Positions 9,453 through 60,045 of a stretch of DNA of 64,000 nt are shown one piece after another (position 1 is the first letter of the stretch; the number at the start of each line of letters is the position of its first letter). Position numbers and translations under genes: made by a program. Source of the stretch: Aquiflexum balticum DSM 16537 (GTDB taxonomy: Bacteria > Bacteroidota > Bacteroidia > Cytophagales > Cyclobacteriaceae); the NCBI RefSeq assembly GCF_900176595.1, contig NZ_LT838813.1, positions 1,674,001 to 1,738,000 of the forward strand, in the 5' to 3' direction. The notes below the pieces were generated by a model. That model saw only the letters and a list, made by a program, of their open reading frames with translations. It did no database searches and was not told where the DNA came from.

Positions 9453-9470
9453 TCGTGGACGGTTTAAAAA

Positions 9471-9668: not shown

Positions 9669-9721
9669 CATTTTCTGAATTTATGATTCAATCATATTGT
9701 CAAATATCCAGAGATCTATTT

Positions 9722-10465
9722 TTACTTTACAGGAGTGTAGGCATCTTTATACCTGGTCCATATTTCATAAATAGGATTTCCGGTTGAACTGACTCCTGTA
9801 TGATGCCATTCCCCATCTATCAATTCATAATCAAAGCTCAAGCTTGCTCCGACTCTTGAATCGTCTCTTGAGAAGAATTCTATATTTTCTACATACTTCC
9901 CGTTTTCGGCAGTATATGTTCCTCCGCCAGTACCCATAAATTCCTTTGTGCCGGAGTTAAATGCAATCCACTGGAATCTGCCTCCGCTAAGTATTTTGAC
10001 TGTTCTCCTGTCTCCGGGGGTGCTCCTTGAAATTTCTCCGTCCCTTTTTCTTCCTGTAAATACCCAATTGGCAGTCAGGTCGTCTTTCTTTTCACTTACC
10101 TTTTCCCAAATTTCAACCAATGTCTGTCCCTGAATTTCAGCAGAAATCACCATTTTATTATCTCCCATGTCCATATTAAACACGGTTGTTTCTCCCACAG
10201 ATTCAGGTTTCATGGTAAAGAAATCAAGAATTTCCTGGTAAACATTTCCATTCAGCAAAAATTCACCGCCCCCAGCACCAACAAATTTATTAGTGCCTAC
10301 TTCTTTTGCTCCAAAAGAAAAATAACCATCCTGATAAATTTTTATATATTCTTCATTTATCATCGCTTTTCCATTTTGATGGGTCATTTTCCATGCTCCT
10401 TCAATAGATTGTGCAAATGACAACCCGGGCAACATCATGAATAGCAATACCAATATTTTTTTCAT
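9722..10465 (-). CDS. Secreted protein with two copies of a beta-rich domain, unknown function
   Basis: A 247-residue protein with a clear N-terminal signal peptide (MKKILVLLFMMLPGLSFAQS). The mature part is an internal duplication. Residues about 21-125 and 131-241 share the series [A/N]W-[K/V], DG/GG-[Y/R]F, GTxxFxGxGGG, [Y]xExIxFF, S-V-G and a closing [V/Y]EIW. The spacing suggests two small lipocalin-like beta barrels in tandem. I recognise no family function. It is expected in the periplasm or outer membrane. The gene stands alone, convergent with tag and divergent from the Rieske gene 20 to 50 bases away. A role in binding a small hydrophobic molecule would be a guess only. Confidence 0.7.
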   Translation of the reverse strand: MKKILVLLFMMLPGLSFAQSIEGAWKMTHQNGKAMINEEYIKIYQDGYFSFGAKEVGTNKFVGAGGGEFLLNGNVYQEILDFFTMKPESVGETTVFNMDMGDNKMVISAEIQGQTLVEIWEKVSEKKDDLTANWVFTGRKRDGEISRSTPGDRRTVKILSGGRFQWIAFNSGTKEFMGTGGGTYTAENGKYVENIEFFSRDDSRVGASLSFDYELIDGEWHHTGVSSTGNPIYEIWTRYKDAYTPVK

Positions 10466-10515
10466 AAGGAGTTTATGTTAGGTTTATGCTCGAATTTACC
10501 ATTTTCTATTCGCTT

Positions 10516-10836
10516 ATGAAAACCTTTGTACTAGGAGATAATAAAGAACAGGTATTGGAACTTATCCCTAATAAAAAAATCAAAACAGTTCAACTAGGAG
10601 CTACCAAAGTATGTGTGACAAGAGATGGAGAAGAATTTTTTGTTTTTGAAACTCTTTGCCCTCACAGAAAGGCTTCCTTGAACCAAGGTTTTATCAATGG
10701 TATGCAAGAGGTCGTGTGCCATTTGCACGAATATAGATTTGACCTGAGAACAGGTCAGGTTACTTCAGGAAGTTGTCCTGACCTCAAAATATTCCAATCT
10801 GAACTGACAGAAAATGGGCTGAAAATCCAAATATAG
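10516..10836 (+). CDS. Rieske [2Fe-2S] ferredoxin-like protein
   Basis: A small cytoplasmic electron carrier of about 106 residues. The two Rieske ligand motifs are complete: CPHRKA (Cys-x-His) and CHLHEYRFD (Cys-x2-His), as in the small subunits of nitrite reductase-type and ring-hydroxylating systems. A frame extension gives a start at 10486, but the ATG at 10516 (MKTFVLGDNKEQ) fits the family better. It has no adjacent oxygenase or reductase, so its partner is unknown. It converges with csaA and the stop codons are only a few bases apart. Confidence 0.85.
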   Translation: MKTFVLGDNKEQVLELIPNKKIKTVQLGATKVCVTRDGEEFFVFETLCPHRKASLNQGFINGMQEVVCHLHEYRFDLRTGQVTSGSCPDLKIFQSELTENGLKIQI

Positions 10837-10840
10837 GCAT

Positions 10841-11176
10841 CTAATGGAGTTTTGATCCATTCGGGACAATTTGGTCTGAAGTGGCAAGTACTACCTGTCC
10901 GGTACCGTCATCAAAACCTGTGACCAAAACCTCTGACATAAAATCCGCGATTTGCTTGGGAGCAAAATTACAAACACAGATAACTTGCTTACCTTTCAGT
11001 TCTTCAGGAGAGTATAAATCTCTGATTTGGGCAGAAGATTTTTTTACCCCCAACTGACCCAAATCTATCCAAAGTTTAAAGGCAGGTTTTCTGGTTTTTT
11101 CGAAAATTTCGGCACGAATTATCGTCCCTATTCTGATGTCAACTTTAGTGAAATCATTGAAGTCAATCGTTTGCAT
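10841..11176 (-). CDS. csaA: tRNA-binding domain protein, CsaA type
   Basis: A 111-residue OB-fold protein of the CsaA/EMAP-II-like tRNA-binding family. The sequence reads [16 protein letters not shown] near the start, then the conserved [18 protein letters not shown] block and VICVCNFAP. These proteins bind tRNA and have been described as secretion-associated chaperones in Bacillus. The frame is open upstream to 11287, but the ATG at 11176 (MQTIDFNDF) gives the normal family length and removes overlap with the divergent gene at 11250. Confidence 0.88.
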
Positions 11177-11249
11177 TGATATAAATTTTTTATAACTTTG
11201 GAAACTTAGCTGAAAATTTTCAGTTATACCTAATAGACCTATATCGCAA

Positions 11250-11627
11250 ATGATTAAATCAACCAAAATTTCTTCAAAGGGCATCAAATCATTACCATTT
11301 TTAGGATTGTTTTGTCTTTTTTTGAGTTTTGCTTCTTTTGCACAAAATGAAAGGGACAGAAATATCCCGGATATGCCACGGAATATTGACGCTCCGAACC
11401 ATTTCGAAAATTCTGAATCAAGCGCTTTGGAACCAAAGACAGAAAATTTTCAAAAACAATCAGTTGCTCCTGCTCGCAATATTCAACAGTCAAATAATTT
11501 AAATCCTGTAAAGAAAGAACCTTCTATCTATAAAGAAGGAGGGGAGAAAGAAATGAGAAAAGAGGGAATGTCCACGCTTTCCTTTAATTTGTTTTTATAT
11601 ATCGTGGACAAATTCAAAGAAGATTAA
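11250..11627 (+). CDS. Small exported protein of unknown function
   Basis: A 125-residue protein with a hydrophobic signal segment ([19 protein letters not shown], about residues 14-32), then a low-complexity, charged and Asn/Pro/Lys-rich mature part, and a short hydrophobic patch near the end ([10 protein letters not shown]). I recognise no domain. It diverges from csaA and ends before a strong bidirectional terminator. It is a real-looking gene because of the signal peptide and the terminator, but its function is unknown. Confidence 0.55.
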
Positions 11628-11654
11628 ATGCAAATACCTATAAACTTCAAATGA

Positions 11655-11682
11655 AAAAAGAGGCTGAGTGGCCTCTTTTTTT
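11655..11682. terminator. Bidirectional terminator between convergent genes
   Basis: The 10-bp perfect arms AAAAAGAGGC (11655-11664) and GCCTCTTTTT (11671-11680) enclose TGAGTG. A-run and T-run flanks allow it to work for both the gene ending at 11627 and the methyltransferase gene ending at 11690. Confidence 0.85.
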
Positions 11683-11689
11683 TATGGTA

Positions 11690-12226
11690 TTACTTCAAAA
11701 TATTCATTTTAACAGCGAAATCCCAAATTGCTATACCCATTGACACGGAAATATTAAGAGAGTGCTTGGTGCCAAGCTGCGGGATTTCAATAATATGATC
11801 ACTCAGTTTGATCACTTCTTCTTCTACTCCAAAGACCTCATTGCCAAAAACCAGTGCATATTTCAAATCTTTGTCAGGAATAAATTCATTCAAATTTGTG
11901 CTTTGATCTACTTGTTCAAATGCGCAAATCAAATATCCATCTGATTTCAGATAATCTATGGCCTCCTTTGTGGAGGCAAAATATCTCCATGAAACTGACT
12001 CCGTTGCCCCTAAGGCCGTCTTTTGGATTTCTTTGTGGGGAGGTTGACCAGTAATCCCGCAGAGGAGAATCTTTTCAACCAGAAAAGCATCGGAAGTTCT
12101 GAAGGCTGAACCCACATTATTGAGGCTTCTTACATTATCCAAAACGATAACTATAGGAGATTTTCTGACTTCTTTAAATTCCTCCACCGATAGCCGGTTG
12201 AGTTCATCCATGTTTAATTTTCTCAT
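11690..12226 (-). CDS. SpoU/TrmH-family RNA methyltransferase
   Basis: A 178-residue SAM-dependent 2'-O-methyltransferase of the SPOUT (trefoil knot) class. Motif 1 is VLDNVRSLNNVGSAFRTSDA with the catalytic Asn-Arg. The knot-forming motifs 2 and 3 are LVFGNEVFGV and IPQLGTKHSLNISVSMGIA. The target is tRNA or rRNA and cannot be fixed from sequence. It is divergent from mutS with an 85-base shared upstream region. Confidence 0.9.
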   Translation of the reverse strand: MRKLNMDELNRLSVEEFKEVRKSPIVIVLDNVRSLNNVGSAFRTSDAFLVEKILLCGITGQPPHKEIQKTALGATESVSWRYFASTKEAIDYLKSDGYLICAFEQVDQSTNLNEFIPDKDLKYALVFGNEVFGVEEEVIKLSDHIIEIPQLGTKHSLNISVSMGIAIWDFAVKMNILK

Positions 12227-12311
12227 GTGGTTTTGTTTCCCTTTCGATATCTTTTAATTTCAGGCTTTCAATGAATTCAAAATTAACATAAAGATTTAAT
12301 AAGGGGACAAA

Positions 12312-14924
12312 ATGGCCAAAGTGAAGGAAAAGGAAGTGAAAGAAACTCCCTTGATGAAACAATACAATGCCATCAAAGCCAAACATCCTGGGGCATTGTT
12401 GCTTTTTAGGGTTGGGGATTTTTATGAGACCTTCGGTGAAGATGCCGTGGTTGCTTCCAAGGTATTGGATATCGTTCTGACCAAAAGAGCCAATGGCGCA
12501 GCTTCACATATTGAATTGGCCGGATTTCCGCACCATTCTCTTGACACCTATCTTCCAAAGCTTGTCAGGGCCGGAAACAGGGTTGCCATTTGTGATCAAT
12601 TGGAAGACCCGAAAGAAGTCAAAGGAATAGTGAAAAGAGGGGTCACCGAATTGGTGACGCCAGGACTTTCATTCAATGATAACGTTCTCGACAAAAGAAA
12701 AAACAATTACCTGGCCTCAATTTATTTTGGCAAGGAAGTACTGGGAATTGCTTTTTTGGATTTGTCCACCGGTGAATTTATGTGTGCCGAAGGTTTACAG
12801 CCTTATATTGAGAAGCTTTTGCAGAGTTTTAGCCCATCGGAGGTAATCTATTCCAAATCTAACAAATCAAGGGCACAGGAGTTGCTGAAAGACCAATATA
12901 GCACCTTTCACTGTGAAGATTGGGTATTCCAATATGACTATACTTACGAAAAACTCACCAAACATTTTGAAACCAATAATTTGAAAGGTTTCGCCATTGA
13001 GAACCTTGAATATGGCATAGTGGCAGCAGGTGCAGTTTTGTATTATCTCGAAGAGACAGAACACAATGAAGTCAGGCATATTTCTTCCATTTCCCGGATT
13101 GCAGAGGAAAAATATGTGTGGTTGGACAAGTTCACAATCCGCAACCTGGAATTGGTATACCCTCAGCAAGAAGGGGGAATACCATTAATCAATATCCTCG
13201 ACCAAACTGTGACCCCTATGGGTTCAAGGATGATGAGAAAATGGCTTGTCCTGCCTCTCAAAGAAAAGGAACTCATCGAAGAAAGACTTCGGGTAGTGGA
13301 ATACTTTTTTGAAGAAGAAGAACTCAGGGAAGGTATTCTCGCTAATCTTAAACAAATAGGTGATTTGGAGAGACTGATCTCAAAAGTAGCGGTGGGAAGG
13401 ATCAATCCAAGGGAAATGAATCAGCTCAAAAAAGCGCTTAAAATTACTGTTCCCATCAAGACGGCACTTGAATCTTCTAAAAGTGAATCGCTCAAAAAAC
13501 TTGCTGACCGGATCAATGCTTGTCAATTCCTTCTTGAAAAAATAGATCGGGAATTACAGGAGGATGCTCCTATGCTTATCCATCAGGGCGGAATTATAAA
13601 ATCAGGCGTAGATGCTGATCTTGACGAATACAGAGGATTGGCCAATACCGGTAAAGATTTTCTCATCTCCATGCAGCAGCGGGAAGTTCAGCGAACTGGT
13701 ATTTCTTCATTAAAGGTAGCTTTCAATAAAGTCTTTGGGTATTATCTCGAAGTGACCAATTCCCATAAGGACAAAGTCCCACTGGAATGGATCAGAAAAC
13801 AAACCCTGGTCAATGCGGAAAGGTATATCACTCCGGAACTGAAAGAATATGAGGAAAAAATTCTGAACGCAGAAGAACGTATGATTGCCATAGAGCAAAA
13901 GTATTTTATGGCATTGGTGCAGGATGCAGCTGAATATGTCTCCCAAATCCAACAAAACGCTCGGGTCTTGGCTACTGTTGATTGCCTTTTATCATTCGCC
14001 TTTGTTGCAAAAAATAATAATTATTGTAAACCTAAGATTGCAGATACTGATTCCCTTGAAATCAAAGATGGAAGACATGCTGTAATTGAGAAGCAACTGC
14101 CTGTGGGAGAGCATTATGTTCCCAATGATATCTACCTTGACAACCAAAGCCAACAGATTATCATCATTACAGGTCCTAATATGGCCGGTAAATCAGCTTT
14201 GTTGAGGCAAACTGCCCTGATAGTCCTTATGGCACAAATGGGAAGTTTTGTTCCGGCCTCCTATGCCAGAATAGGTATCATTGACAAAGTCTTTACCCGA
14301 GTAGGTGCATCAGATAATCTTGCCAAGGGAGAATCCACATTTATGGTGGAAATGACAGAAACTGCCAGTATCTTAAACAACCTATCTGATCGGAGTTTGG
14401 TATTGATGGATGAAATCGGGCGGGGGACTTCCACTTATGATGGGATCTCCATAGCTTGGTCTATTGTAGAATTTTTGCACAACCATCCCAAATTCAGGGC
14501 AAAAACACTTTTTGCCACCCATTATCATGAACTCAATCAATTGGCTGATGATTTTCCTAAAATCAAAAACTTCAATGTATCTGTTAAGGAAGTCGGAAAC
14601 AAAGTGATATTCATGAGAAAATTAAAAGAAGGTGGAAGTGAACATAGTTTTGGTATACATGTAGCCCAGATGGCTGGAATGCCCAATCCTATCGTACTCA
14701 GGGCCTCTGAAATCATGGGGCATCTTGAAAAAGATAAGGCAATGAATGCTTCCAAAGATAAGATCAAAGATATGCCCAAGAATAATTACCAGCTCAGTCT
14801 ATTTGATTTGGATCCAAAATTCAAGGAAACCCAGGAAATGTTGGAAAATATAGATATCAATACCATTTCACCTATCGAGGCCTTGATAAAACTCAATGAG
14901 ATCAAGAAAAAATTGGAGAAGTGA
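12312..14924 (+). CDS. mutS: DNA mismatch repair ATPase MutS
   Basis: An 870-residue mismatch-recognition protein. The mismatch-wedge motif is at residues 36-39 (DFYE within GDFYETFGEDA). The connector, core and clamp domains follow. The C-terminal ATPase has Walker A GPNMAGKS at about residue 621, Walker B VLMDEIGRGTSTYDG and the ATHYHEL motif. The C-terminal end contains an SLFDLDP-like clamp-binding peptide. The start is supported by AAGGGG a few bases upstream of the ATG. Length and motifs are normal. It is followed by 317 bases holding only the tRNA promoter and leader. Confidence 0.97.
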   Translation: MAKVKEKEVKETPLMKQYNAIKAKHPGALLLFRVGDFYETFGEDAVVASKVLDIVLTKRANGAASHIELAGFPHHSLDTYLPKLVRAGNRVAICDQLEDPKEVKGIVKRGVTELVTPGLSFNDNVLDKRKNNYLASIYFGKEVLGIAFLDLSTGEFMCAEGLQPYIEKLLQSFSPSEVIYSKSNKSRAQELLKDQYSTFHCEDWVFQYDYTYEKLTKHFETNNLKGFAIENLEYGIVAAGAVLYYLEETEHNEVRHISSISRIAEEKYVWLDKFTIRNLELVYPQQEGGIPLINILDQTVTPMGSRMMRKWLVLPLKEKELIEERLRVVEYFFEEEELREGILANLKQIGDLERLISKVAVGRINPREMNQLKKALKITVPIKTALESSKSESLKKLADRINACQFLLEKIDRELQEDAPMLIHQGGIIKSGVDADLDEYRGLANTGKDFLISMQQREVQRTGISSLKVAFNKVFGYYLEVTNSHKDKVPLEWIRKQTLVNAERYITPELKEYEEKILNAEERMIAIEQKYFMALVQDAAEYVSQIQQNARVLATVDCLLSFAFVAKNNNYCKPKIADTDSLEIKDGRHAVIEKQLPVGEHYVPNDIYLDNQSQQIIIITGPNMAGKSALLRQTALIVLMAQMGSFVPASYARIGIIDKVFTRVGASDNLAKGESTFMVEMTETASILNNLSDRSLVLMDEIGRGTSTYDGISIAWSIVEFLHNHPKFRAKTLFATHYHELNQLADDFPKIKNFNVSVKEVGNKVIFMRKLKEGGSEHSFGIHVAQMAGMPNPIVLRASEIMGHLEKDKAMNASKDKIKDMPKNNYQLSLFDLDPKFKETQEMLENIDINTISPIEALIKLNEIKKKLEK

Positions 14925-15093
14925 GTAGCAAAACAATCCAAAATCGATTTGGAATAAAATTATCTGGTTAGTCTTTTGTTCGCTTTGTTGACAATTTGAA
15001 AATTAACTTGCCCAATCTATTTTGATTAATGGACTGATTATCAATTTGGAAAATCTGAGTCATGGGAATAAACAAATTTTTTGATGGTTGCTT

Positions 15094-15124
15094 TTTGCAT
15101 ATTTCAAAAACTGCTTTACCTTTG
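15094..15124 (+). promoter_or_regulatory. Promoter of the tRNA-Gly/tRNA-Leu operon
   Basis: TTTG (15094-15097) is followed after exactly 19 bases by TACCTTTG (15117-15124), a perfect TTTG-N19-TAnnTTTG promoter. The expected start near 15131 lies upstream of both tRNA genes. The rest of the 14925-15241 gap holds only the tRNA-Gly fragment described separately. Confidence 0.8.
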
Positions 15125-15175
15125 CACACACAAAAGACGAAGATGTAAGGTCATCGGCTTGATTTAATGAAAAAT

Positions 15176-15222
15176 GCGAGAGTAGTTCATCCATGATAGC
15201 TATCGGGAGGTAGATCTCAACC
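15176..15222 (+). pseudogene. Truncated tRNA-Gly copy interrupted in the D-loop
   Basis: GCGAGAGTAGTTCA (15176-15189) matches the first 14 bases of the intact tRNA-Gly at 13 positions. After a 19-base insertion containing GATAGCTATC, the segment GGTAGATCTCAACC (15209-15222) matches its continuation GGTAGAGCACGACC at 11 of 14. No anticodon or T arm follows. It lies in the transcribed leader of the operon. Confidence 0.55.
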
Positions 15223-15241
15223 GCAAATTGAAATAATGAAT

Positions 15242-15314
<73 letters not shown>

Positions 15315-15317
15315 CAA

Positions 15318-15339
15318 AAAGCCCTTGAAAAAGGGCTTT
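15318..15339 (+). terminator. Hairpin after tRNA-Gly
   Basis: The arms AAAGCCCTT and AAGGGCTTT close a GAAA tetraloop. It lies between the tRNA-Gly and tRNA-Leu genes, so it is either a partial terminator or a processing signal. Confidence 0.6.
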
Positions 15340-15377
15340 GCTGTTTAAAAGTAAAATATACTCTAGCAGTAGAGTAA

Positions 15378-15461
15378 GCCGGGATGGTGGAATAGGTAGA
15401 CACGCAAGACTTAAAATCTTGTGGCTTCACGGCCGTGCGGGTTCGATTCCCGCTCCTGGTA
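15378..15461 (+). tRNA. tRNA-Leu (TAA anticodon)
   Basis: An 84-base class II tRNA. The acceptor stem is GCCGGGA/TCCTGGT. The anticodon loop CTTAAAA has TAA at 15412-15414. There is a long variable arm (GTGGCTTCACGGCCGT) and the T arm GCGGG-TTCGATT-CCCGC. No CCA is encoded. Confidence 0.95.
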
Positions 15462-15465
15462 CTTA

Positions 15466-15493
15466 AAAGTCGCTCAAAAGGCGGCTTTTTTTG
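15466..15493 (+). terminator. Terminator of the tRNA operon
   Basis: The arms AAAGTCGC (15466-15473) and GCGGCTTT (15481-15488) pair with one G-T pair and are followed by a T-run. Confidence 0.75.
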
Positions 15494-15560
15494 TTTTATA
15501 TCGATAATTGTTAAGTTTCTTTGCCACATTCATGGATGTAAAAATTCATTTCACTTTTTA

Positions 15561-15584
15561 TTTGATTCCCCGTACCTGGTACTT
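15561..15584 (+). repeat. Imperfect copy of the tRNA-Leu 3' end
   Basis: This 24-base stretch ends in CCTGGTACTT and matches the tRNA-Leu 3' end plus flank (15442-15464) in 20 of 24 aligned columns. It lies about 100 bases beyond the tRNA and upstream of the Fic gene. It could be an attachment-site remnant or the tail of a lost tRNA-Leu gene. Confidence 0.5.
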
Positions 15585-15630
15585 CTGATTTTGAATAATT
15601 TAGGACTTATCAATTCTTATCAATATAAAC

Positions 15631-15702
15631 AACATTAAAAGCTAAATAAAGTAGAACATTAAAAGCTAAAAATAGTAAAACATTAAAAGCTAAAACCTAT
15701 AT
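15631..15702 (+). repeat. Three 24-bp direct repeats upstream of the Fic gene
   Basis: The 16-base core AACATTAAAAGCTAAA occurs perfectly at 15631, 15655 and 15679, giving an exact 24-base period. The array ends at a TAnnTTTG box (TATATTTG, 15698-15705) just before the gene. No TTTG stands 19 bases upstream of that box, as the repeats occupy its place. It looks like an operator, probably for the gene's own AbiEi-like N-terminus. Confidence 0.7.
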
Positions 15703-50080: not shown

Positions 50081-51895
50081 ATGAAACAACTATTCCTCTC
50101 CTTTCTAATCTTTCTGGTCTCTCTGACTTCTATAGCTCAAAAACAAAAGGCTGACAATCGTTTTGAAGGTCTTGACTCCGAACTAAATAAAGTCCTAGAA
50201 ACCTGGAATGCAGCTGGATTTGCCGTTGCTGTGGTTGAAAAAGACAAAATCATCTACTCCAAGGGTTTTGGCTACAAGGATTATGAAAATAAAATTCCAA
50301 TTACTCCAAACACACTTTTTGCCATCGGATCAAGTAGCAAGGCTTTCACTTCCGGGCTGTTGGGGATATTGAGGGAAGAAAAAAAATTGTCTTTTGATGA
50401 TAGTCCAAGCAAACATATCCCCGACCTTCGCTTTTACAATAATGAGATGAACAATCTGATAACCATCAAGGATATCATGACCCATAGAACTGGGCTTCCA
50501 AGACATGACCTGAGTTGGTATTTTTTCACTACCCAATCCCGGGATTCCTTAATGCAAAGAATTCAATATCAGGAACCATTTGCCAAACCTAGGGAAAATT
50601 GGTATTACAATAATTTCATGTTTTTGACCCAAGGAGTAATCGCCGAAAGAATAACAGGCAAAACCTGGGAAGAAAATATTCAGGAAAAGTTTTTTGATCC
50701 CTTGGAGATGAAAACAAGCAATGCTGTAATCACAGGCCTGAAAAACGGCAAAGATGCATCCTTTGGCTACGAAGTAAAAAACGATTCCATCATCAAAAAG
50801 ATGGACTATTATGACATTGCCGCTATGGGTCCTGCCGGGAGTATCAACAGCAATGTCAATGAAATGTCCAATTGGCTGATCACATGGATCAATGGAGGAA
50901 AATTTAAAGGCAACCAAATCCTGCCTGAAGCCTATGTCAAAGAAGCCATGAGTCCACAAATGATAATGGCAAACAGTATCCCTGACAAAGAATTTCCGGA
51001 TATGCATATCAGTACTTATGGCTACGGATGGATGGTTTCTTCCTATAAAGGACATTACAGGGTGGAACATGGAGGAAATATTAACGGATTCTCTGCGAAT
51101 GCAGCATTTTTCCCGATGGATAGTATTGGAATTGTGGTCTTGTCCAATCAAAATGGCTCTCCGATTCCCGGGATTGTCAGAAATATAATCAGTGATAGAT
51201 TACTGAAAGTAGATAAAACTGATTGGAATAAAGTACAAAAAGAAAAAGCTGATGAAGCCAAAAAGCAAGCTTCAGCAAGTCAGGAACAAACCACTTCAAT
51301 TCAGAAAAAGGGTACCAAAACCTCTCATCTTCTTGCTGAATTTACCGGAGATTATATCCACCCGGGATATGGAAAGATAGCTATTCAATTTGAAAGAGAC
51401 TCCCTTTTTGCAAGTACCCCCTATCAAAAAGTCTGGTTAAAGCATTTCCATTATAATATCTTTTCTTTGGTGGGTATGGAAAAGGGAAAGGTTGATACCA
51501 CTACGGTTTCTCCCATGCAGTTCAATTTCAGAATCAATAATATGGGAGAAATTGCTTCTCTTTCGTTCAAAGCTGAACCAATGGTGGATGCCATAGAATT
51601 CAAGCGTACGCCCAAAGAAGTTGCTTTGGAAAAAGAAACCTTGGAAAAATATACAGGGGATTATGACTTGGGCGGACAGGTTGCTAAATTTTATTTAAAA
51701 GAAGGAAATGAGAATACGCTTTTCCTTTTTGTGGCAGGTCAACCCGAATATGAGTTACTCTCCTTAGGACAGCACAAATTTGCATTAAAAATAGCAGATG
51801 GTTATACAGTTGAATTCAAAGAGGAGAGCAACGGCAAATTTCAGCAAGCAGTTTTCGTTCAGCCTAACGGCACATTCAAAGCGGAGAGAAAATAA
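50081..51895 (+). CDS. Exported serine hydrolase of the class C beta-lactamase/PBP family
   Basis: A 604-residue protein with a signal peptide (LFLSFLIFLVSLTSIAQ). The serine hydrolase domain (about 30-385) has the SxxK motif SSSKAF, a YxN motif (YYNN), and a terminal VEHGGN (the H/KxG box). The last 180 residues are two lipocalin-like DUF3471 beta domains (AEFTGDYIHPGYGKIAIQFER, TLEKYTGDYDLGGQVAKFY). These proteins act as peptidases or esterases in the periplasm; resistance is not implied. It stands alone. Confidence 0.9.
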   Translation: MKQLFLSFLIFLVSLTSIAQKQKADNRFEGLDSELNKVLETWNAAGFAVAVVEKDKIIYSKGFGYKDYENKIPITPNTLFAIGSSSKAFTSGLLGILREEKKLSFDDSPSKHIPDLRFYNNEMNNLITIKDIMTHRTGLPRHDLSWYFFTTQSRDSLMQRIQYQEPFAKPRENWYYNNFMFLTQGVIAERITGKTWEENIQEKFFDPLEMKTSNAVITGLKNGKDASFGYEVKNDSIIKKMDYYDIAAMGPAGSINSNVNEMSNWLITWINGGKFKGNQILPEAYVKEAMSPQMIMANSIPDKEFPDMHISTYGYGWMVSSYKGHYRVEHGGNINGFSANAAFFPMDSIGIVVLSNQNGSPIPGIVRNIISDRLLKVDKTDWNKVQKEKADEAKKQASASQEQTTSIQKKGTKTSHLLAEFTGDYIHPGYGKIAIQFERDSLFASTPYQKVWLKHFHYNIFSLVGMEKGKVDTTTVSPMQFNFRINNMGEIASLSFKAEPMVDAIEFKRTPKEVALEKETLEKYTGDYDLGGQVAKFYLKEGNENTLFLFVAGQPEYELLSLGQHKFALKIADGYTVEFKEESNGKFQQAVFVQPNGTFKAERK

Positions 51896-52042: not shown

Positions 52043-53368
52043 ATGTCTGCTATTCACAGAGGATTAACCGTGACGGTTATTGTTAAGGAAGAAAAGCTGA
52101 GCGAGATCAATGTGCTTTTGGAAGAGTATAATCTACATTCCAAAAATCATCAGGAAGATTACCATGTTCAAATGCCCAGCACTTTTTTTATCAGTTGGCT
52201 GACGCTTCCTTCCCAATTTTATGCAGAAAAAGAGCAGCTTCCCGCGAGGATTATTTTATTGACGAGTTATGTAGGAAATAAGAAAAGGCATCTAAATGAA
52301 TTGGTTGCCTTTATGGGATCAAAATTAAAAGCAGTATTTGCTTTTAGCGAGGAGTTTAAATCAACTGCAAATGATAATGAGGGATTGGTTAAGTTTTTGA
52401 ACCAAAAAAGCATTTTCAACACATTTTATTCAGGTTTCAAATTCATAAAGACCCAAGATGTCAAAAAAGAGCTAGACCTCAGAAACAAGGTGTTTGATTA
52501 TCTAAATTCCAAAAGGGAAGAACCGGGTTTTAGCTATCAAAGCCCTGAAGAAATTAAAGAGCAGATAGAAAATTTTGTAAAAAAGGAAGATGCTACAAAA
52601 TGGGCTGAGGTGGGACTGAAAAGTTTGAAGACGGATAAGTTCAATATGCTTACACCACTTTACATTTTCGGTTTGGTGATGGCTACTTCCATAATTTTTT
52701 TAATTCTTTCCATATTTATGAAGCCCTCATTCTTATTTTGGATCGGCTTGATTTTTCCTGTGTTTCTTATTGGACTGATCATCTTATTTTTATTGCTGAG
52801 AATCAATGAAAACAATCCCCACATTCCCAATAAACCTGTTTCAGATGATTGGATCAGGAATATTGTTCTTAGGGAGAATAATACTGTGATCAATGAAATG
52901 ACAGTGATAGCACCATTGAAAAAAGGACTGATCCGGAGAATTTTTCTCGGAGTTTCTTTAAGATTGGTCTATCTGATCAGGTTTTTTTCCTACATCCCGA
53001 CAGTACATACCGCGCGGTGGTTACAGATGGATAGCGGAAAAAGATTGGTATTCATAGCCACTTTTGACAATCTCTCAGAAGCATATGCCCATGATTTTGT
53101 GGATAGTGAAAACCGGACCAGAAACATGGCGGTGATTTTCAGCCATGCGGCAGGGTTTCCGGCCACTACCTGGCTGGTAAAGAAAAGTTACAATCATAGG
53201 AGTGAATATATGAAAGGGGTAAGGGCACATCAAAAAATCACCCAGTTTTGGTACACCTTCAATACTGATCTCAGTGTGGAAAATCTCAAGACCAACCGCA
53301 AGTTTAGGGAGGGTTTGTTCAAGAAAATGAGTGCGGATGAAATCAGGGAATGGCTTTTAACTATCTAA
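52043..53368 (+). CDS. Membrane protein with two predicted alpha/beta lobes, first gene of a peroxidase cluster
   Basis: A 441-residue protein with two hydrophobic segments in the middle (about residues 207-228 and 235-252). Both soluble halves carry a pattern of W, then a strand with a run of hydrophobics, then a helix: SWLTLPSQFY with ILLTSYVGNKKRHLNELVAF in the N-half, and ARWLQMDSGKRLVFIATFDNLSEAYAHDFVD in the C-half. This suggests a pair of ferredoxin-like (dimeric alpha/beta-barrel type) domains related to the DyP fold. No catalytic residue is recognised. It ends 3 bases before the DyP peroxidase start, so is surely cotranscribed. It may hold the haem proteins at the membrane. Confidence 0.65.
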   Translation: MSAIHRGLTVTVIVKEEKLSEINVLLEEYNLHSKNHQEDYHVQMPSTFFISWLTLPSQFYAEKEQLPARIILLTSYVGNKKRHLNELVAFMGSKLKAVFAFSEEFKSTANDNEGLVKFLNQKSIFNTFYSGFKFIKTQDVKKELDLRNKVFDYLNSKREEPGFSYQSPEEIKEQIENFVKKEDATKWAEVGLKSLKTDKFNMLTPLYIFGLVMATSIIFLILSIFMKPSFLFWIGLIFPVFLIGLIILFLLLRINENNPHIPNKPVSDDWIRNIVLRENNTVINEMTVIAPLKKGLIRRIFLGVSLRLVYLIRFFSYIPTVHTARWLQMDSGKRLVFIATFDNLSEAYAHDFVDSENRTRNMAVIFSHAAGFPATTWLVKKSYNHRSEYMKGVRAHQKITQFWYTFNTDLSVENLKTNRKFREGLFKKMSADEIREWLLTI

Positions 53369-53371
53369 ATA

Positions 53372-54790
53372 ATGGCACTTGAATTAAATGACATGCAAGG
53401 CTTGTTGATAAGGGGATTTGGTAACCTTCAGGGGGCCCAATATGTATTGCTGAATTTTTCTGATGCTGTCCAGGCAAAAGGTTATTTAAAAGAGCTTTTC
53501 CCATTAATCACTCCGGCAAATGAAAAACCTACTGATCATGCCCTTCAAGTTGCTTTTACTTACGAAGGCATTTCCTTTCTCCAAATGCCTGTGGAAGGTT
53601 TGGAAAGTTTTTCAAGGGAATTTAGAGAAGGGATGACAGATACCCATCGTCAGTTTGTTCTAGGCGACAGTGGGGACAATGACCCTAAAAACTGGGAATG
53701 GGGGAGTCCTGATAAGGATGTTATCCACATGCTTTTGATGGTTTTTTCAGAAAACAATGAAACTTTGGTTGAAAAACTGAAAACTGAAAAAGACAGGGCT
53801 GACAAGTATGGGGTAAATGTCCTGCATTCATTACCTTCCGGATTTTTGCAAAACCATAAAGAGCATTTTGGATTCAGAGATGACATTTCAAGACCGATTA
53901 TTGAAGAATTGGTGGATAATCCCGAAAAAATAACCGGAATTACTTTTCCTGCAGGTGAATTTATCATGGGTTACAAAAACCTATATGATGAATTTTCTCC
54001 TGCACCAAAACTCCCAAAGGAATATGATAAAAATGATTTACTCCCTCTTTGCCCCGAAGAACCTGGTCTTAAGGATTTTGGGAAAAACGGAACCTATCTG
54101 ATTTTCCGCCAATTGGAACAAGATGTATTTACATTCTGGGAATTTCTCAAAAACCAAAGTAAGTCTGAAGAAGAAGCCATTAAAATTGCCAGCAAAATGG
54201 TTGGCAGATGGCCGGACGGTTCTCCGCTTACTTTGTGCCCGGTCAAAAATGACCCTGAATTATCCATATCCAATAATTTTGGCTTTTGGGAGGAAGATAA
54301 AGCCGGATTGAAATGTCCCATTGGTTCTCATATCAGAAGAACAAATCCAAGAGATCATTTGGTGACGGAAAAAACCAAAAAGGATTCTGCAGAAATGGCC
54401 TCCAAACATAGAATGATCAGAAAAGGTAGACCCTATGGAAATCCCGTGACTGATGACCTTAATCCTGTGGATTTGATGTCACTGTCCAAGGATGATGAAA
54501 AGAGAGGATTACATTTTATCTGTCTGGTGACGGATATACGAAGGCAGTTCGAATTTGTACAGAACAATTGGGTCAACTTCCACAAGTTTGGGGGTTTGGA
54601 CCATGATGCTGATCCCATAATCGGTAACCATTTCCAAAATTCAGAAGTAATCACGGATGAATTCAGCATTCCTGATTATCCGGTGAAAAGGAAAATCAAG
54701 AATCTGCCCAATTTTACCATTACCAAAGGCGGAAGCTATTTCTTCATTCCTGGTCTGAAAGCAATTCAATTCCTGGCAAATCATGAATAA
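53372..54790 (+). CDS. DyP-type haem peroxidase
   Basis: A 472-residue cytoplasmic or membrane-associated peroxidase. The family motif is at residues 163-175 (KEHFGFRDDISRP): the catalytic Asp170 is kept, but the usual Gly of GxxDG is Asp171. The haem ligand is His320 (CPIGSHIRRTNPRD), and the distal Arg is in TDIRRQFEFVQNNW. The class resembles the large DyP enzymes. There is no Tat or other signal peptide, and no encapsulin cargo tail is recognised. It overlaps the catalase-family gene by 8 bases. It would oxidise an organic substrate with peroxide; the substrate is unknown. Confidence 0.88.
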   Translation: MALELNDMQGLLIRGFGNLQGAQYVLLNFSDAVQAKGYLKELFPLITPANEKPTDHALQVAFTYEGISFLQMPVEGLESFSREFREGMTDTHRQFVLGDSGDNDPKNWEWGSPDKDVIHMLLMVFSENNETLVEKLKTEKDRADKYGVNVLHSLPSGFLQNHKEHFGFRDDISRPIIEELVDNPEKITGITFPAGEFIMGYKNLYDEFSPAPKLPKEYDKNDLLPLCPEEPGLKDFGKNGTYLIFRQLEQDVFTFWEFLKNQSKSEEEAIKIASKMVGRWPDGSPLTLCPVKNDPELSISNNFGFWEEDKAGLKCPIGSHIRRTNPRDHLVTEKTKKDSAEMASKHRMIRKGRPYGNPVTDDLNPVDLMSLSKDDEKRGLHFICLVTDIRRQFEFVQNNWVNFHKFGGLDHDADPIIGNHFQNSEVITDEFSIPDYPVKRKIKNLPNFTITKGGSYFFIPGLKAIQFLANHE

Positions 54791-55748
54791 CAGCATAGAC
54801 GAAAAAGAAGAAAAAGAAATTCAGGAAATCATTCAGACCATGAAAAGATTCCTATCTGATACTTACCCAAAAGGTAATATCAAAAGGAATTTTCATCCCA
54901 AGATGCATGGATGTCTGAAAGGAACTTTGGAAATCCGGAATGATCTACCGGATACACTTAAGCAAGGTCTTTTCAAGTCACCCAATACCTATGAAGTCTG
55001 GCTGCGGTTCTCTAATGCACCCCCAAAAATCCAATCTGATAAAAGCAGTTCTGGAAGAGGCTTGGCCATTAAAGTGTTGAATGTCCCAGGAACGGTTATT
55101 GAAGAAGATCCTATTGGTGTCAATTGTCAAAATTTTTTGATGACCACCAGCCCCATACTTTCCGCGGGAAGTATCAGGTTATACAACAAGGCTATCAAAG
55201 CAATCCTCTTTGGCTGGAAAAGACAGTTGGTTTTTGCATTGAATCCATTGCATTGGCGCAGTTTATTTCTCACTTTAAAGCATTCCAAAAAGCACGATAA
55301 TCTACTGGCACAAAAATATTTTTCAGGAGGAGCGTTCAGGTTCGGTCCTGATCAATTTGTCAAATTTGTCTTAGAACCCCATAATTCAAATTTGGGCTAT
55401 ACCTTGGGAAAACCAAAAACTGATAATTTTCTGCGCGAACAGCTTAAAGCCGATCTCAAATCCTGCCAACATGGATTTACCATTTATGTGCAAGTACATG
55501 AAAATGATAAAACCGAACCATTGGAAGATACCTCTGTAGAATGGAAAAAAGAGGGGGTACCTGTAGCAGATTTATGGATACCTGCCCAGGATTTTGATTT
55601 TGAAGAGCGGAATAAATTCGGTGAGGCACTTTCATTTTCCCCTTGGGCCTGTTTGGAAGACCATGAACCCATTGGCGGCATCAACCGCGCGAGAAGGTTG
55701 GTTTATAAAGAGCTTGCCGAACTGCGAAAAACCGAAAACTCAGTCTAG
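54783..55748 (+). CDS. Catalase-family haem protein (allene oxide synthase/SrpA-like)
   Basis: A 321-residue member of the small catalase-related group. It lacks the long arms of true catalases. The distal His42 is in HPKMHGCLKG. The C-terminus has RRLVYKELAELR, where Tyr308 and Arg304 fit the RxxxY haem ligand motif. Catalase-related proteins of this size include fatty acid hydroperoxide-metabolising enzymes such as allene oxide synthase, so lipid hydroperoxide use is a reasonable but unproven idea. It overlaps DyP by 8 bases and converges with the FAD oxidase gene, overlapping it by 9 bases. Confidence 0.83.
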   Translation: MNNSIDEKEEKEIQEIIQTMKRFLSDTYPKGNIKRNFHPKMHGCLKGTLEIRNDLPDTLKQGLFKSPNTYEVWLRFSNAPPKIQSDKSSSGRGLAIKVLNVPGTVIEEDPIGVNCQNFLMTTSPILSAGSIRLYNKAIKAILFGWKRQLVFALNPLHWRSLFLTLKHSKKHDNLLAQKYFSGGAFRFGPDQFVKFVLEPHNSNLGYTLGKPKTDNFLREQLKADLKSCQHGFTIYVQVHENDKTEPLEDTSVEWKKEGVPVADLWIPAQDFDFEERNKFGEALSFSPWACLEDHEPIGGINRARRLVYKELAELRKTENSV

Positions 55749-57644
55749 TATGTTTTTAATGAAAGGATTGGTAAATGTTTCTCCCCCAAATATTGCCTGA
55801 TGCCTTTTCCAATCCTCATAGTGCGGAAATGCCCTTTCTACCATTTCCTTTGACCATGGCAGTAAAGATAGCCCCCAATGAGGCACTGCTCCGATTTCCA
55901 ATAATTCAGCCTCAATCCTTTTCATTAAAGAAATGGTACCGGTAACTCCCTTCACACTTACAACTTCTATCATACACATATCTGACTTGTTCATCATAGA
56001 AAAATACCCCGGACAGTGCTTGACATAGCGCAGAGAAAAAGGTGCTGCCAAATAATGGCCATAGGCTTTAGCTTCTTCACAAACCTTGGTGATCACGTCA
56101 ACCGCTTCAAAGGCCTTTTCTATTTCAAAACCAAATTCAATGGCATAGCCATAAAATTTCAGTTCTCCGAGTCCCTGATCCAGAACCTTGTAAGAAACAT
56201 CTTCAAATCCACCACCTTTTTTGGCATGATCTTCCAAGCGGGCAAGGGAATTGTTGGTCATTCTTGGAATATTTTGGCTGTTTCTGTTAAAAACCCAAGG
56301 GGATAGTCTTCCCGATATGGAAATTCCTGATACGAAGGAAGAAAGGTAATTTCTTTCCCTTTTTGCAATAGGTGGCACCTCACAGGATTCCGCATAATCT
56401 CTGGTAGTTAGCAAACACTTCCTTGATGGATTTTCTTCTGTTTCGTCAATATATGGATTGATAAGCACTTCAAAATTGCGGTTGGAATTGATAAAGATGT
56501 AAAGGTCTCCCTCCAGCATTTTGGCTTTCAAGGTTTCCCATTCCCAAATTACCCGTTCCTCATACAACTTGTAAGATTTCTGCACTTCCACAATCAATGA
56601 AAATACCAACCCCATAGAACCTACGCCTACCATCACGGCATTAAAAGTATCATCATCCTGAATCAGTTGGATGTCATGTTTTTGGACTTCCGGATCTGCC
56701 AAAAACAATTCCGGATCAGTGATCCCATTGGTTGGTTCCACTCTATATGCTTTGGATCCTTTCCCTACAAGTGTCATTGACTTTACCATTCCCGGAAGAG
56801 GACCCAATCCTATTCCCGATCCATGGGTAGATGTAGCAATTGCCCCTGATATTGCCTGAATGCTGGATCCGCCCTTGTTCATCAGTGCCAAGCCATCTTT
56901 TTCCAAGGCTGTGATCAATTGGTGCACTTTTGTTCCACCACTGGTTTCAAATAGAAAGTGTTTTTCTTTCGATTTTACATTTCTGAAATTGACATCCACA
57001 TCAAATCCATTTAAAAATTCAGGTTTGATAAATTGCTCAGCTTTACGCTGTGTCAGGTTTAAATTATGCGTGCAGACAATAAAATCTTCAGATTGAGCAA
57101 TAGGGGTAAGGGCATGTCCTGAACCAATGGCACGGATCTTCCGGCCTTCAGCTTCGGCATAGGAAATTATTTCTTTTACTTCTTCCAGACCTTTATAATC
57201 ATAATTCCCCCATTGTTCGGATATGGCTTCAAATTTACTATGACTTCCGCTTCCCGGTACAAAGATTTTCAATGGTTCAGAGGCATGGTTCCCATACCAA
57301 TTGCTCCATTGCTGACGAAAGGGAAAATCTTTTTCGTAGGTTTTGCTGTAGGATAGTTCCTCATCAAAAGACAAAATAACCTTTTCATGAATCGGGGAAT
57401 CCTTATTGAGACGGTTTTCGATAATCCTGCGTACAAACCTTGGCTTCACTACTGTATTGATCCGCTTTACCCATTGGAGACGCTTTTCTCTTGTACAATG
57501 ATGGGTAAGTGTTTCATCCAAGTCCTCTATTCTGTCGGGCAAGTTTTTTTGGTTGAAAATAACTGCGGTTAATAACCTCGTAATTACCCAGACAACTGAT
57601 ACGTTATCTTTCTTTTTTTCGATCCATGCGGCATAAAGAAACAT
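55740..57644 (-). CDS. FAD-linked oxidase of the aldonolactone oxidase type
   Basis: A 634-residue flavoprotein. The first 110 residues are an extra domain that I cannot name. The FAD-binding PCMH-type domain spans about residues 145-330, with RAIGSGHALTPIAQSE and GSSIQAISGAIATSTHGSG, whose Thr-His may bind flavin covalently. The C-terminus is like D-arabinono-1,4-lactone oxidase, with the HWG motif (VPHWGLSLLPW). Such enzymes reduce oxygen to hydrogen peroxide, which would feed the peroxidase and catalase-family proteins next to it. It is convergent with them and overlaps the catalase-family gene by 9 bases. Start 57644 is preferred. Confidence 0.85.
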   Translation of the reverse strand: MFLYAAWIEKKKDNVSVVWVITRLLTAVIFNQKNLPDRIEDLDETLTHHCTREKRLQWVKRINTVVKPRFVRRIIENRLNKDSPIHEKVILSFDEELSYSKTYEKDFPFRQQWSNWYGNHASEPLKIFVPGSGSHSKFEAISEQWGNYDYKGLEEVKEIISYAEAEGRKIRAIGSGHALTPIAQSEDFIVCTHNLNLTQRKAEQFIKPEFLNGFDVDVNFRNVKSKEKHFLFETSGGTKVHQLITALEKDGLALMNKGGSSIQAISGAIATSTHGSGIGLGPLPGMVKSMTLVGKGSKAYRVEPTNGITDPELFLADPEVQKHDIQLIQDDDTFNAVMVGVGSMGLVFSLIVEVQKSYKLYEERVIWEWETLKAKMLEGDLYIFINSNRNFEVLINPYIDETEENPSRKCLLTTRDYAESCEVPPIAKRERNYLSSFVSGISISGRLSPWVFNRNSQNIPRMTNNSLARLEDHAKKGGGFEDVSYKVLDQGLGELKFYGYAIEFGFEIEKAFEAVDVITKVCEEAKAYGHYLAAPFSLRYVKHCPGYFSMMNKSDMCMIEVVSVKGVTGTISLMKRIEAELLEIGAVPHWGLSLLPWSKEMVERAFPHYEDWKRHQAIFGGETFTNPFIKNILD

Positions 57645-57777: not shown

Positions 57778-60045
57778 TTATTTCTGGTTTTTTGATAAGG
57801 CTTTACTCATCTCTTCGACTACCTGCAGGGCATTTTCTTTGGTAAAAATCAAAGGGGGCTTTGTTTTCAGCACACTGTCTTTGGGACCATCGGTACTTAT
57901 AAGTATGAATTGTTCTCTCAATTTATTTTTGATGGTTTTGGCCAGCAGTGGATCTTCCTCCTTTGTGCCCGGTTTAACCAAATCCACGCCAAGGAATAAA
58001 CCTGAACCCCTGACATCCCCGATGCAATCATGATTTTTTTGAAGCTCCAAGAATAAGGACTTGTAGTAATTCCCTACCACTTTGGCATTTTCCTGCAAAC
58101 CTTCTTCCTCCATGACTTCCAAAACTGCCAAACCTATGGCGCAAGAAACCGGATTACCTCCAAAAGAACTGAAAAACTCTACTCCCTTTTCAAAAGACTC
58201 CGCAACTTCTTGGTTACAGACTACAGCTCCCATTGGATGGCCATTTCCCATTGGCTTGCCCAAGATCACCATATCCGGCACCACAGCATGCTGCTCAAAT
58301 CCCCAAAAATAATCCCCAACCCTTCCAAAACCGGTTTGCACCTCATCCGAAATACAAAGTCCTCCTTGGGCACGAACAGCCGCATACACTTCCCGCAAAT
58401 ATCCTGGAGCCAGAGGTATTTGTCCGCCGCAACCCACAATGGGTTCAGCTATAAATGCTGCGATCGGCATTTGGAAATTGTTTATTAATCCTTTGGCCTC
58501 CTTGGCATACGCCATTCCTGATTTTTCGCTTTCACCGGCGTATTTTCCTCGATAAGCATCAGGAATTGGAACTTTCAGGATATTTTCTTTTTTGCCCTGC
58601 CCTTTGGGATTGTTAAACTTATAATCTGAAATATCAATGGAAATCTGGGTATTCCCATGGTAGCCATGCTCAACCACGGCTATCCCCTCTCTTTGGGTAT
58701 GCCACTTTGCCATTCGGACGGCCAAATCACTGGCCGCACTGCCTGAATTCACAAAGAAAACCCTGTTCAAAGATGATGGAAACTTCGCGAACAATTTCTC
58801 CGCATATTCAGGCAAAAGGTCATAAAGATATCGGGTATTGGTATTGAGCTTGGCCATTTGTCTTTGCCCCGCTTCGACAACCTTGGGATGGGAATGCCCT
58901 ACATGGGGAATATTATTGTATGCATCCAAGAAAGTATTTCCATAGGCATCATACATGTATTGGAAAGCGGCCCTTTCCATTTTGATTGGATTATTATAGC
59001 TGACGGATAAAATGCTGCTTAGGTATTGATTACGGTAAATCAGGCTATCTTCCAGTGAAAGCACCTTTTTCTTAGGCAAACCAGCCACTTCCCTGAATCT
59101 ATTCTCCGCTTCAATAGGATTGATTTTCAGCCAACCATAAAGCATTTTCCAGGCATTTTCTTCACTGACAGAGGCATAGGCGTTTTCAGGATTAGTTTTT
59201 CTGGCATGGGCCGAATTACACACACTGGAACATAACCTTGCCGCAATCAGGTAATACAGTGCTTCCAATTCTTTTTCTTCAAGAGAAATTACGGATTGGT
59301 AACCCTTTAATACCTCCACACCCCATTCCAAATAATTATCTTTGTCGTAAGCGGCATAAGTCATGGCAACTGCCAGCTCCTGAAGAAAAGGTGCATAGGC
59401 AAGATCGCCGAAATCAATCAATGCCAAATCCTTGTTTTCTTTGAGGAGGATATTCCATTCATTCGCATCATTGTAAATAATGGATTTGCGCAGGCTTGGC
59501 AGAATAGGTCTGACATTTTCTTCGAATTGTTGGAGGAAATATTGGACAAGGCTTATGTCCTTTGCAGATGGAATATCTTCCAAATAATCCCTGATAAACT
59601 CTGGATATTGGATATGCCATTCCCATTTTCTGGATTGGATAGGGTAGTTTTTTAATCGTGAAAGTTCCTTATCCAATTCTCCCAAAAAGTTACCTAAGGA
59701 GTAATATTGTTCTTTTTCTGTTTTTGTATTTCCCAAAAAACTGCCTTCCAAAAAAGACAAAAGCCTTATAATTTGGGATTTTCCATTAACTTCAACAACA
59801 TCAACATGGTTACCGGATAGAAATGGTACTGGGGTTGGAATTCTGCCTTCAAATTTTTGTTGCAGAACCAATAAAATATCGGTTTCAGCTTGGACCAAAT
59901 CAAATGTGTCCAAAGAATAGGGATAGGTTTTTAGAATGAATTTTCCTTCTTCGGTATTCATCAAATAATTGGCATTGTCATAGCCATTCAACCGTTTGAT
60001 TTCAAGGAAATGAAAATCAATCCGGGTCTTAATCCATTCTTCCAT
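57778..60045 (-). CDS. Fused APH-type kinase and class III PLP phospho-lyase (hydroxylysine kinase/phospho-lyase type)
   Basis: A 755-residue bifunctional protein. Residues about 1-330 are an aminoglycoside phosphotransferase-like kinase with [11 protein letters not shown] (catalytic Asp) and ALIDFGDL (metal-binding DFG). Residues about 335-750 are a class III aminotransferase-fold PLP enzyme with the Schiff-base Lys in [15 protein letters not shown] and conserved DEVQTGFGR. In vertebrates the kinase (HYKK) and phospho-lyase (AGXT2L-type) are separate proteins that remove 5-hydroxylysine or ethanolamine phosphate; here they are one chain. It should phosphorylate a small amino alcohol and cleave the phosphate ester to release phosphate and ammonia. 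The M23 module found in some fusions is absent. Confidence 0.85.

What the first reader, a model, noticed from the sequence alone, without database searches (positions are those of the whole stretch)
52043..57644. Redox gene cluster joining DyP peroxidase, catalase-family protein, FAD oxidase and a new membrane protein
Three genes overlap or lie within 3 bases; the fourth converges with 9 bases of overlap. An FAD oxidase would make peroxide, which DyP could use and the catalase-family protein could consume or divert to hydroperoxide chemistry. The membrane protein is unknown. The set could be a lipid-oxidation or signalling pathway that has not been described.
Basis: partly seen in the sequence, partly recalled or inferred. 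Interest (0 to 1): 0.7.

Follow-up and report, generated by a model that had tools for sequence, protein, structure and literature searches.

The report
Membrane-anchored two-heme lipid-oxidation module
A marine-type bacterium carries a tightly kept gene set in which a previously unnamed membrane protein always travels with a DyP peroxidase and often with a second heme enzyme (catalase-like or P450), which looks like a new bacterial way of making oxidised lipids and would give DyP peroxidases a physiological role that can be tested.

Summary
The four genes are real and laid out as described. They are not a chance neighbourhood. In 196 genomes of the family, all 26 close DyP homologues sit next to the membrane protein, 25 of 26 also have the catalase-like gene, and the FAD gene occurs only in genomes that have the set. 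In 80 loci from at least seven phyla the membrane protein directly precedes DyP wherever sequence continues (76 of 76). Fusions exist: membrane protein–DyP, catalase-like–membrane protein, and single P450–membrane protein–DyP chains in three Alphaproteobacteria. The catalase-like protein and the P450 never occur together (36 and 20 of 80 loci), so they look like alternatives. The membrane protein is a new family: two homologous ferredoxin-like (ABM-type) domains around a hydrophobic hairpin. The catalase-like protein keeps the heme residues and folds closest to a mycobacterial catalase-related protein and coral allene oxide synthase. The distant form of the set shares a giant kinase with a lipoxygenase–coral-AOS-like operon of the same genome. 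Best reading: a membrane-bound, peroxide-driven lipid (hydroperoxide) oxidation module in the slot usually held by lipoxygenase or dioxygenase. The grouping is established; the chemistry is inferred and untested.

The parts
52043..53368 (+). Membrane protein (MEM), 441 aa: two homologous ferredoxin-like/ABM-type domains (about 4-135 and 278-410) separated by a hydrophobic hairpin (about 196-258). New family.
   Evidence: ORF; no Pfam/NCBIfam hit; AF2 pLDDT 83.7; best fold 9lmn WhiE-ORFI Z 13.5; internal duplication hhalign prob 98-99.5; R298, H322, W326, D342, Y348, D351, W403 97-100% conserved in 94 homologues.
53372..54790 (+). DyP-type heme peroxidase (DYP), 472 aa, closest solved relative D. 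radiodurans DyP (class C/V)
   Evidence: distal Asp170 (98%), distal Arg246 (99%), proximal His320 (all sequences with a letter there) in 100 homologues.
54783..55748 (+). Catalase-related heme protein (CAT), 321 aa; not a full-length catalase
   Evidence: AF2 pLDDT 89.5; closest folds 3e4y and 1u5u (coral allene oxide synthase) Z 28 against 25-26 for catalases; R35, H38, R75, S77, R304, Y308, R315 in 62 of 62 homologues.
55740..57644 (-). VAO/ALO-type flavoprotein oxidase (FAD), 634 aa, with an unassigned N-terminal ~140 aa
   Evidence: PF01565 + PF04030; nearest PDB xylitol/alditol oxidase and GALDH; His177 and gatekeeper Gly258 invariant.

Best explanation
The set is a membrane-associated, peroxide-driven lipid-oxidation module. 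Steps, with status: (1) MEM is a membrane-inserted scaffold: its two ferredoxin-like halves pair on one face of the membrane, the hairpin anchors them, and it holds DyP and the second heme enzyme together (shown: gene linkage, fusions; predicted: fold; inferred: topology and complex). (2) The FAD oxidase makes H2O2 close by (inferred from Gly258/His177; substrate unknown, perhaps a small polyol- or lactone-like compound). (3) DyP uses peroxide to oxidise a hydrophobic substrate held at MEM, most likely an unsaturated lipid, giving a lipid radical or hydroperoxide (inferred). (4) The catalase-related protein, or in other bacteria a P450, rearranges, reduces or cleaves that hydroperoxide (inferred from their exchange for one another, their folds, and the same pairing in coral, cyanobacterial and fungal oxylipin enzymes). 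(5) In the paralogous form of the set, the product may be sensed by a giant kinase encoded next door (inferred).
For: Linkage: 26/26 strong DyP hits next to MEM, 25/26 with CAT, FAD only in genomes with the set; MEM then DYP in 76/76 informative loci from many phyla. Fusions: MEM-DyP (L089, L108), CAT-MEM (L137), P450-MEM-DyP of 1423-1620 aa in Novosphingobium, Pararhizobium and Sulfitobacter. CAT and P450 mutually exclusive, 0 of 80. P450s keep the axial Cys and ExxR, but the Alphaproteobacterial ones have lost the acid (some also the alcohol) of the O2-activating I-helix pair, as expected of enzymes fed with ready-made peroxides. Hydrophobic-substrate hints: CAT fused to a START-like domain, patatin lipase and cholesterol-oxidase-like GMC neighbours, MEM hairpin. 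A kinase homologous over ~1,470 aa stands beside MEM-DyP-CAT (own genome L052 included) and beside 5 of 6 LOX loci. Two KatG genes cover bulk H2O2 removal. Precedents: cyanobacterial dioxygenase + catalase-related lyase and fungal DOX-CYP fusions (PMC13049297); coral AOS-LOX (PMC5617202).
Against: No enzyme assay, expression data or metabolite. DyP forming lipid hydroperoxides is not known to me. Most P450s outside Alphaproteobacteria keep an acid followed by Thr or Asn in the I-helix, typical of monooxygenases. The window's own cluster has no kinase, lipase or START domain; those come from related loci. The FAD protein's nearest solved relatives act on sugar-like compounds. Whether these bacteria hold suitable unsaturated lipids was not examined.
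Confidence: 0.48

Rival explanations
1. Peroxide or lipid-peroxide detoxification at the membrane: DyP and CAT remove H2O2 and organic hydroperoxides formed by damage or by the neighbouring oxidase; no dedicated product.
For: DyP and catalase-related proteins both consume peroxides; the mycobacterial catalase-related protein 3e4y is the closest fold; the genome has no PF00199 catalase.
Against: Two KatG genes are present; the set is rare and patchy (23 of 196 genomes), unlike general stress genes; P450 replaces CAT; it comes with its own predicted peroxide-making oxidase.
Confidence: 0.17
2. Tailoring pathway for a specialised metabolite or pigment (polyketide, carotenoid or flexirubin type): MEM works as an ABM-type polyketide-modifying domain, DyP and CAT/P450 oxidise the product.
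For: MEM's best folds are polyketide ABM proteins WhiE-ORFI (Z 13.5) and Abx(+)O (Z 10.3); P450s and FAD/GMC oxidases are usual tailoring enzymes; beta-carotene is a reported DyP substrate (PMC10820274).
Against: No synthase, ketosynthase or terpene gene beside the window set; START-like fusion and shared kinase with a LOX operon point to lipids.
Confidence: 0.17
3. Sterol/hopanoid-type membrane lipid oxidation: the flavin oxidases act directly on a polycyclic lipid and the heme enzymes continue.
For: GMC partner best matches a cholesterol oxidase model, though far under its cut-off (150 of 850 bits); START-like fusion.
Against: The window FAD protein matched alditol oxidase/GALDH and no cholesterol oxidase in the PDB sequences.
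Confidence: 0.08
4. Heme or iron handling: IsdG-like ABM fold plus DyP (EfeB-like) extract iron from heme.
For: IsdG/IsdI appear among weak MEM fold matches (Z about 3.5-3.9); the DyP family includes EfeB (own knowledge).
Against: No iron transporter among the neighbouring genes examined; the EfeB-type model scores only 12.5 of 428 bits; does not explain CAT/P450 exchange or the FAD oxidase.
Confidence: 0.04

Closest known systems
Coral allene oxide synthase-lipoxygenase and cyanobacterial dioxygenase + catalase-related hydroperoxide lyase pairs
   Same: A catalase-related heme enzyme tied to an oxidising partner; same minimal catalase fold (Z 28 to 1u5u), same distal His, Arg and proximal Tyr pattern.
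   Different: The partner is a DyP on a membrane ABM scaffold instead of LOX or a COX-like dioxygenase; activity unknown.
Fungal dioxygenase-P450 (DOX-CYP) fusions
   Same: A heme peroxidase-type module joined to a P450 in one chain, as in the P450-MEM-DyP proteins found here.
   Different: DyP is unrelated to the COX-like peroxidase domain; a membrane ABM module lies between; the P450 comes first.
Class C/V DyP peroxidases (D. radiodurans DyP, 8re2/8re3)
   Same: Closest solved sequence (E 3e-85); Asp, Arg, His triad kept.
   Different: Here the DyP is always paired with MEM; GFRDD or GFRDG in the distal motif.
Tandem ABM/SchA-like polyketide proteins (WhiE-ORFI 9lmn, Abx(+)O 9ltx)
   Same: Two ferredoxin-like domains packed as an internal pseudo-dimer (Z 13.5 and 10.3).
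   Different: MEM has a hydrophobic membrane hairpin between the domains and no detectable sequence family.
VAO/ALO flavoprotein oxidases (alditol/xylitol oxidase, GALDH)
   Same: FAD domain, His177 motif, HWG motif, gatekeeper Gly.
   Different: About 140 extra N-terminal residues; HWGL instead of HWxK; substrate unknown.

Membership tests
Monofunctional heme catalase (PF00199) | Full-length catalase domain recognised by the family model | tested here: not met
   Window CAT (321 aa) has no Pfam hit; homologues reach the model only over the N-terminal ~70-100 residues.
Monofunctional heme catalase (PF00199) | Distal His, Ser, Asn and proximal RxxxY | tested here: inconclusive
   R35/H38, S77, R304/Y308, R315 in 62 of 62; the Asn148 position is not conserved (window may have N114, most homologues P/E/A), alignment there uncertain.
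Catalase-related allene oxide synthase / hydroperoxide lyase family | Catalase-core fold with heme residues, short protein | tested here: met
   AF2 pLDDT 89.5; Z 28.0, rmsd 3.0 over 287 residues to 1u5u, tied with 3e4y.
Catalase-related allene oxide synthase / hydroperoxide lyase family | Activity on fatty-acid hydroperoxides | not testable with these tools
   Needs enzyme assay.
DyP-type peroxidase | Distal Asp in GxxDG, distal Arg, proximal His | tested here: met
   D170 98%, R246 99%, H320 in all sequences with a letter; fifth motif position G/D/S; DrDyP uses Asp189, Arg248, His324 (PMC10820274).
DyP-type peroxidase | Family model score | tested here: inconclusive
   TIGR01413 90.4 bits against cut-off 100.5; PF20628 just over its cut-off, 20.8 against 20.
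VAO/ALO flavoprotein oxidase | FAD-binding 4 + ALO domains | tested here: met
   PF01565 42.5 and PF04030 34.9 bits, both over cut-off.
VAO/ALO flavoprotein oxidase | Oxidase-type gatekeeper residue (Gly rather than Ala) | tested here: met
   Gly258 aligns with the changed residue of the GALDH A113G variant and is invariant in 27 sequences.
ABM / dimeric alpha+beta barrel proteins | Two ferredoxin-like domains pairing into a barrel | tested here: met
   MEM model: Z 13.5 to 9lmn over 226 residues spanning both halves; N and C halves homologous. No sequence-level link to a named family.
Lipoxygenase pathway | Lipoxygenase encoded together with the catalase-like gene | tested here: not met
   LOX in 7 of 196 genomes, only 2 of which have the set; in the own genome LOX has its own coral-AOS-like gene elsewhere.

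The most novel reading that the evidence does not exclude
MEM-DyP is a new type of lipid-oxygenating machine, a bacterial counterpart of lipoxygenase and cyclooxygenase built from a DyP peroxidase on a membrane ABM scaffold, with catalase-related or P450 modules as interchangeable product-shaping partners (in some bacteria all in one chain of about 1,450 residues), making signalling lipids read by a kinase.
Probability: 0.25. Interest if true: 0.93.

Novelty: new variant of a known kind. Interest (0 to 1): 0.76.

Why it matters
The physiological substrates of DyP peroxidases are an open question (stated in PMC10820274). Here one DyP group has a constant membrane partner and a choice of second heme enzyme, which narrows the question to a testable one. 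If right, bacteria have an oxylipin-type system that does not need lipoxygenase, found across many phyla, and three natural P450-membrane-DyP fusion enzymes are ready for assay.

Tried and rejected
Profile comparison of MEM with DyP to see whether MEM is a degenerate DyP: no similarity (probability 0.1). Defence system: no PADLOC hit for the four proteins. Lipoxygenase as the general partner of CAT: rejected, 2 of 7 LOX genomes carry the set where about 0.8 is expected by chance. Animal-type heme dioxygenase (PF03098) in the own genome: none, but the control rang nowhere, so uninformative. Own-genome P450: none. First phylum-wide MEM search gave mostly chance hits to long membrane proteins and was not used. 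Literature: 10 searches found no paper describing a MEM-DyP pair, a P450-DyP fusion or this gene set; only open-licence papers were searched. Distance matrices of MEM, DYP and CAT correlate strongly (Spearman 0.90-0.92, with FAD 0.55-0.66), but shared ancestry alone can give this, so it is not used as proof of interaction.

Full report
What is there. The window lies in a complete 5.99 Mb genome (G000) whose nearest relatives for this locus are Cyclobacteriaceae such as Lunatibacter and Cyclobacterium. Four genes fill 52043-57644: MEM (+), DYP (+), CAT (+) and FAD (-), with 3 bases between the first two, 8 bases of overlap between the next two and 9 bases of convergent overlap at the end. The flanking genes are not part of it: neither the beta-lactamase-like gene upstream nor the aminotransferase downstream recurs beside the set in relatives.

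Is it more than chance. In 196 genomes of the family, MEM has 26 true places in 23 genomes (the weak G407 hit covers only a membrane stretch of a 1,051-residue frame). A DyP profile finds 26 strong places and these are the same 26 loci. The CAT profile finds 25 strong places, all of them in these loci. The FAD profile finds 13 strong places (all with E reported as 0), all in genomes with the set, 12 of them beside it. Order and strand of MEM-DYP-CAT are constant in the 15 close loci, the window's own included. A second, more distant form exists, also in the window's own genome (L052): MEM-DYP followed by a convergent CAT gene that in most copies carries an extra C-terminal Polyketide_cyc2 (START/SRPBCC-like, lipid-transport) domain.

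Beyond the family. A scan of about 85,000 species' genomes with the MEM alignment gave 80 loci in Bacteroidota, Myxococcota, Gemmatimonadota, Armatimonadota, Planctomycetota, Verrucomicrobiota and Proteobacteria. DYP follows MEM in 76; in the other four the contig stops within about 130 bases of the MEM frame. Fusions confirm the link: MEM-DyP in L089 and L108, CAT-MEM in L137, and P450-MEM-DyP single chains of 1443, 1423 and 1620 aa on plasmids of Novosphingobium, Pararhizobium and Sulfitobacter.

Interchange of the second heme enzyme. Within about 6 kb of MEM, 36 loci carry CAT and 20 carry a P450; none has both. Treating loci as independent, the chance of no overlap is 5e-7; collapsing by hand to about 62 lineages it is about 6e-5; neither value is corrected for phylogeny, and 24 loci show neither enzyme, several of them on short contigs. 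All 24 P450 sequences examined keep the axial Cys and ExxR. In the Alphaproteobacterial ones the I-helix acid-alcohol pair is altered (GGPPQ or G-x-x-PT); most others keep an acid followed by Thr or Asn. Catalase-related enzymes and self-sufficient P450s are the two known kinds of hydroperoxide-transforming partners of lipoxygenases and heme dioxygenases (PMC13049297; PMC5617202).

The proteins. CAT: AF2 model pLDDT 89.5; nearest structures are the 33-kDa catalase-related protein of M. avium paratuberculosis and coral allene oxide synthase, both Z 28, against 25-26 for true catalases. Arg35, His38, Arg75, Ser77, Arg304, Tyr308 and Arg315 are present in all 62 homologues; their spacing matches cAOS (R64/H67 and Y353/R360) and catalase. 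The distal Asn position is not conserved and its alignment is uncertain. DYP: nearest D. radiodurans DyP, E 3e-85; Asp170, Arg246 and His320 conserved. FAD: nearest alditol oxidase and GALDH; Gly258 stands where the GALDH A113G variant 8qnc differs from wild type, and His177 fits the covalent-FAD motif; that this Gly permits O2 reaction is established knowledge of the VAO family, not tested here. MEM: AF2 pLDDT 83.7 shows two ferredoxin-like domains and a hydrophobic segment of about 60 residues between them (shorter, about 30-40 residues, in the distant form); the two domains are homologous and pack like tandem ABM proteins. Because the halves pair, both should lie on one side of the membrane; positive residues flank the hairpin, which suggests the cytoplasmic side (inference). 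The C-terminal domain holds most of the invariant residues (Arg298, His322, Trp326, Asp342, Tyr348, Asp351, Trp403), so it may bind a ligand or be catalytic.

A parallel operon in the same genome. Outside the window, at G000:C1 about 1572-1581 kb, lie a lipoxygenase (nearest 5ek8, E 1.7e-98), a 363-aa protein whose only PDB matches are coral allene oxide synthase entries (E 1.9e-59) and a 1765-aa Ser/Thr kinase-AAA-GAF-histidine kinase protein. Kinases of the same build, about 30-36% identical over about 1,470 residues, stand beside all ten loci of the distant MEM-DYP-CAT form (L051-L060, the own-genome copy L052 included), beside a number of loci found in other groups, and beside 5 of 6 LOX loci. 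So MEM-DyP-CAT and LOX-(AOS-like) occupy the same place relative to one kinase type. How many such kinases the genomes carry elsewhere was not counted. The 363-aa protein keeps the distal His motif but not the proximal Tyr, so its activity is uncertain.

How it most likely works. An oxidase provides H2O2; a DyP held on a membrane scaffold oxidises a lipid; a catalase-related enzyme or a P450 converts the resulting hydroperoxide; in some bacteria a kinase senses the result. Shown: the gene grouping, the fusions, the exchange of CAT for P450 and the conserved residues. Predicted: the folds. Inferred: substrate, product, direction of peroxide flow, topology, complex. Detoxification is less likely because two KatG genes exist, the set is patchy and it brings its own oxidase. 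A pigment or polyketide pathway remains possible because of MEM's ABM fold.

Novelty. No family model covers MEM, and no paper found in ten full-text searches of open-licence literature describes the set or the P450-DyP fusion. It works like known two-enzyme oxylipin systems but is not shown to be one; it is filed as a new variant of that kind, with a more radical reading kept open.

Noticed in passing
L159 (G000:C1:1565000-1582000): 7062-9269, 9281-10372, 10385-15682: Outside the window, same genome: operon of a lipoxygenase, a protein related to coral allene oxide synthase (E 1.9e-59) and a giant kinase; the same trio recurs in L167, L168 and L169. The AOS-like protein lacks the proximal heme Tyr in the complete copies examined.
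   Followed up: partly
L148:3943-8274, L150:3889-8160, L147:4054-8916: Single-chain P450-MEM-DyP proteins of 1423-1620 aa on Alphaproteobacterial plasmids, annotated only as 'cytochrome P450' or 'Dyp-type peroxidase'.
   Followed up: yes
L115, L121-L123, L127, L128, L140: P450-cluster neighbours of 701-728 aa in these loci; in the two scanned (L123, L128) a GST-like domain precedes the P450 domain.
   Followed up: partly
L101, L107, L126, L135: SnoaL-like gene between DYP and CAT and a TIR (SIR2-like in L107) gene downstream in four loci; weak similarity to defence TIR proteins.
   Followed up: no
window 57778-60045 (-): APH-type kinase domain fused to a class III aminotransferase, directly beyond the FAD gene; not conserved with the cluster.
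   Followed up: no
window 50081-51895 (+): Class C beta-lactamase-like serine hydrolase with a DUF3471 domain, upstream of MEM; not conserved with the cluster.
   Followed up: no
FAD protein, residues 1-140 (window 57225-57644, -): Highly conserved N-terminal region with no convincing Pfam match; function unknown.
   Followed up: no
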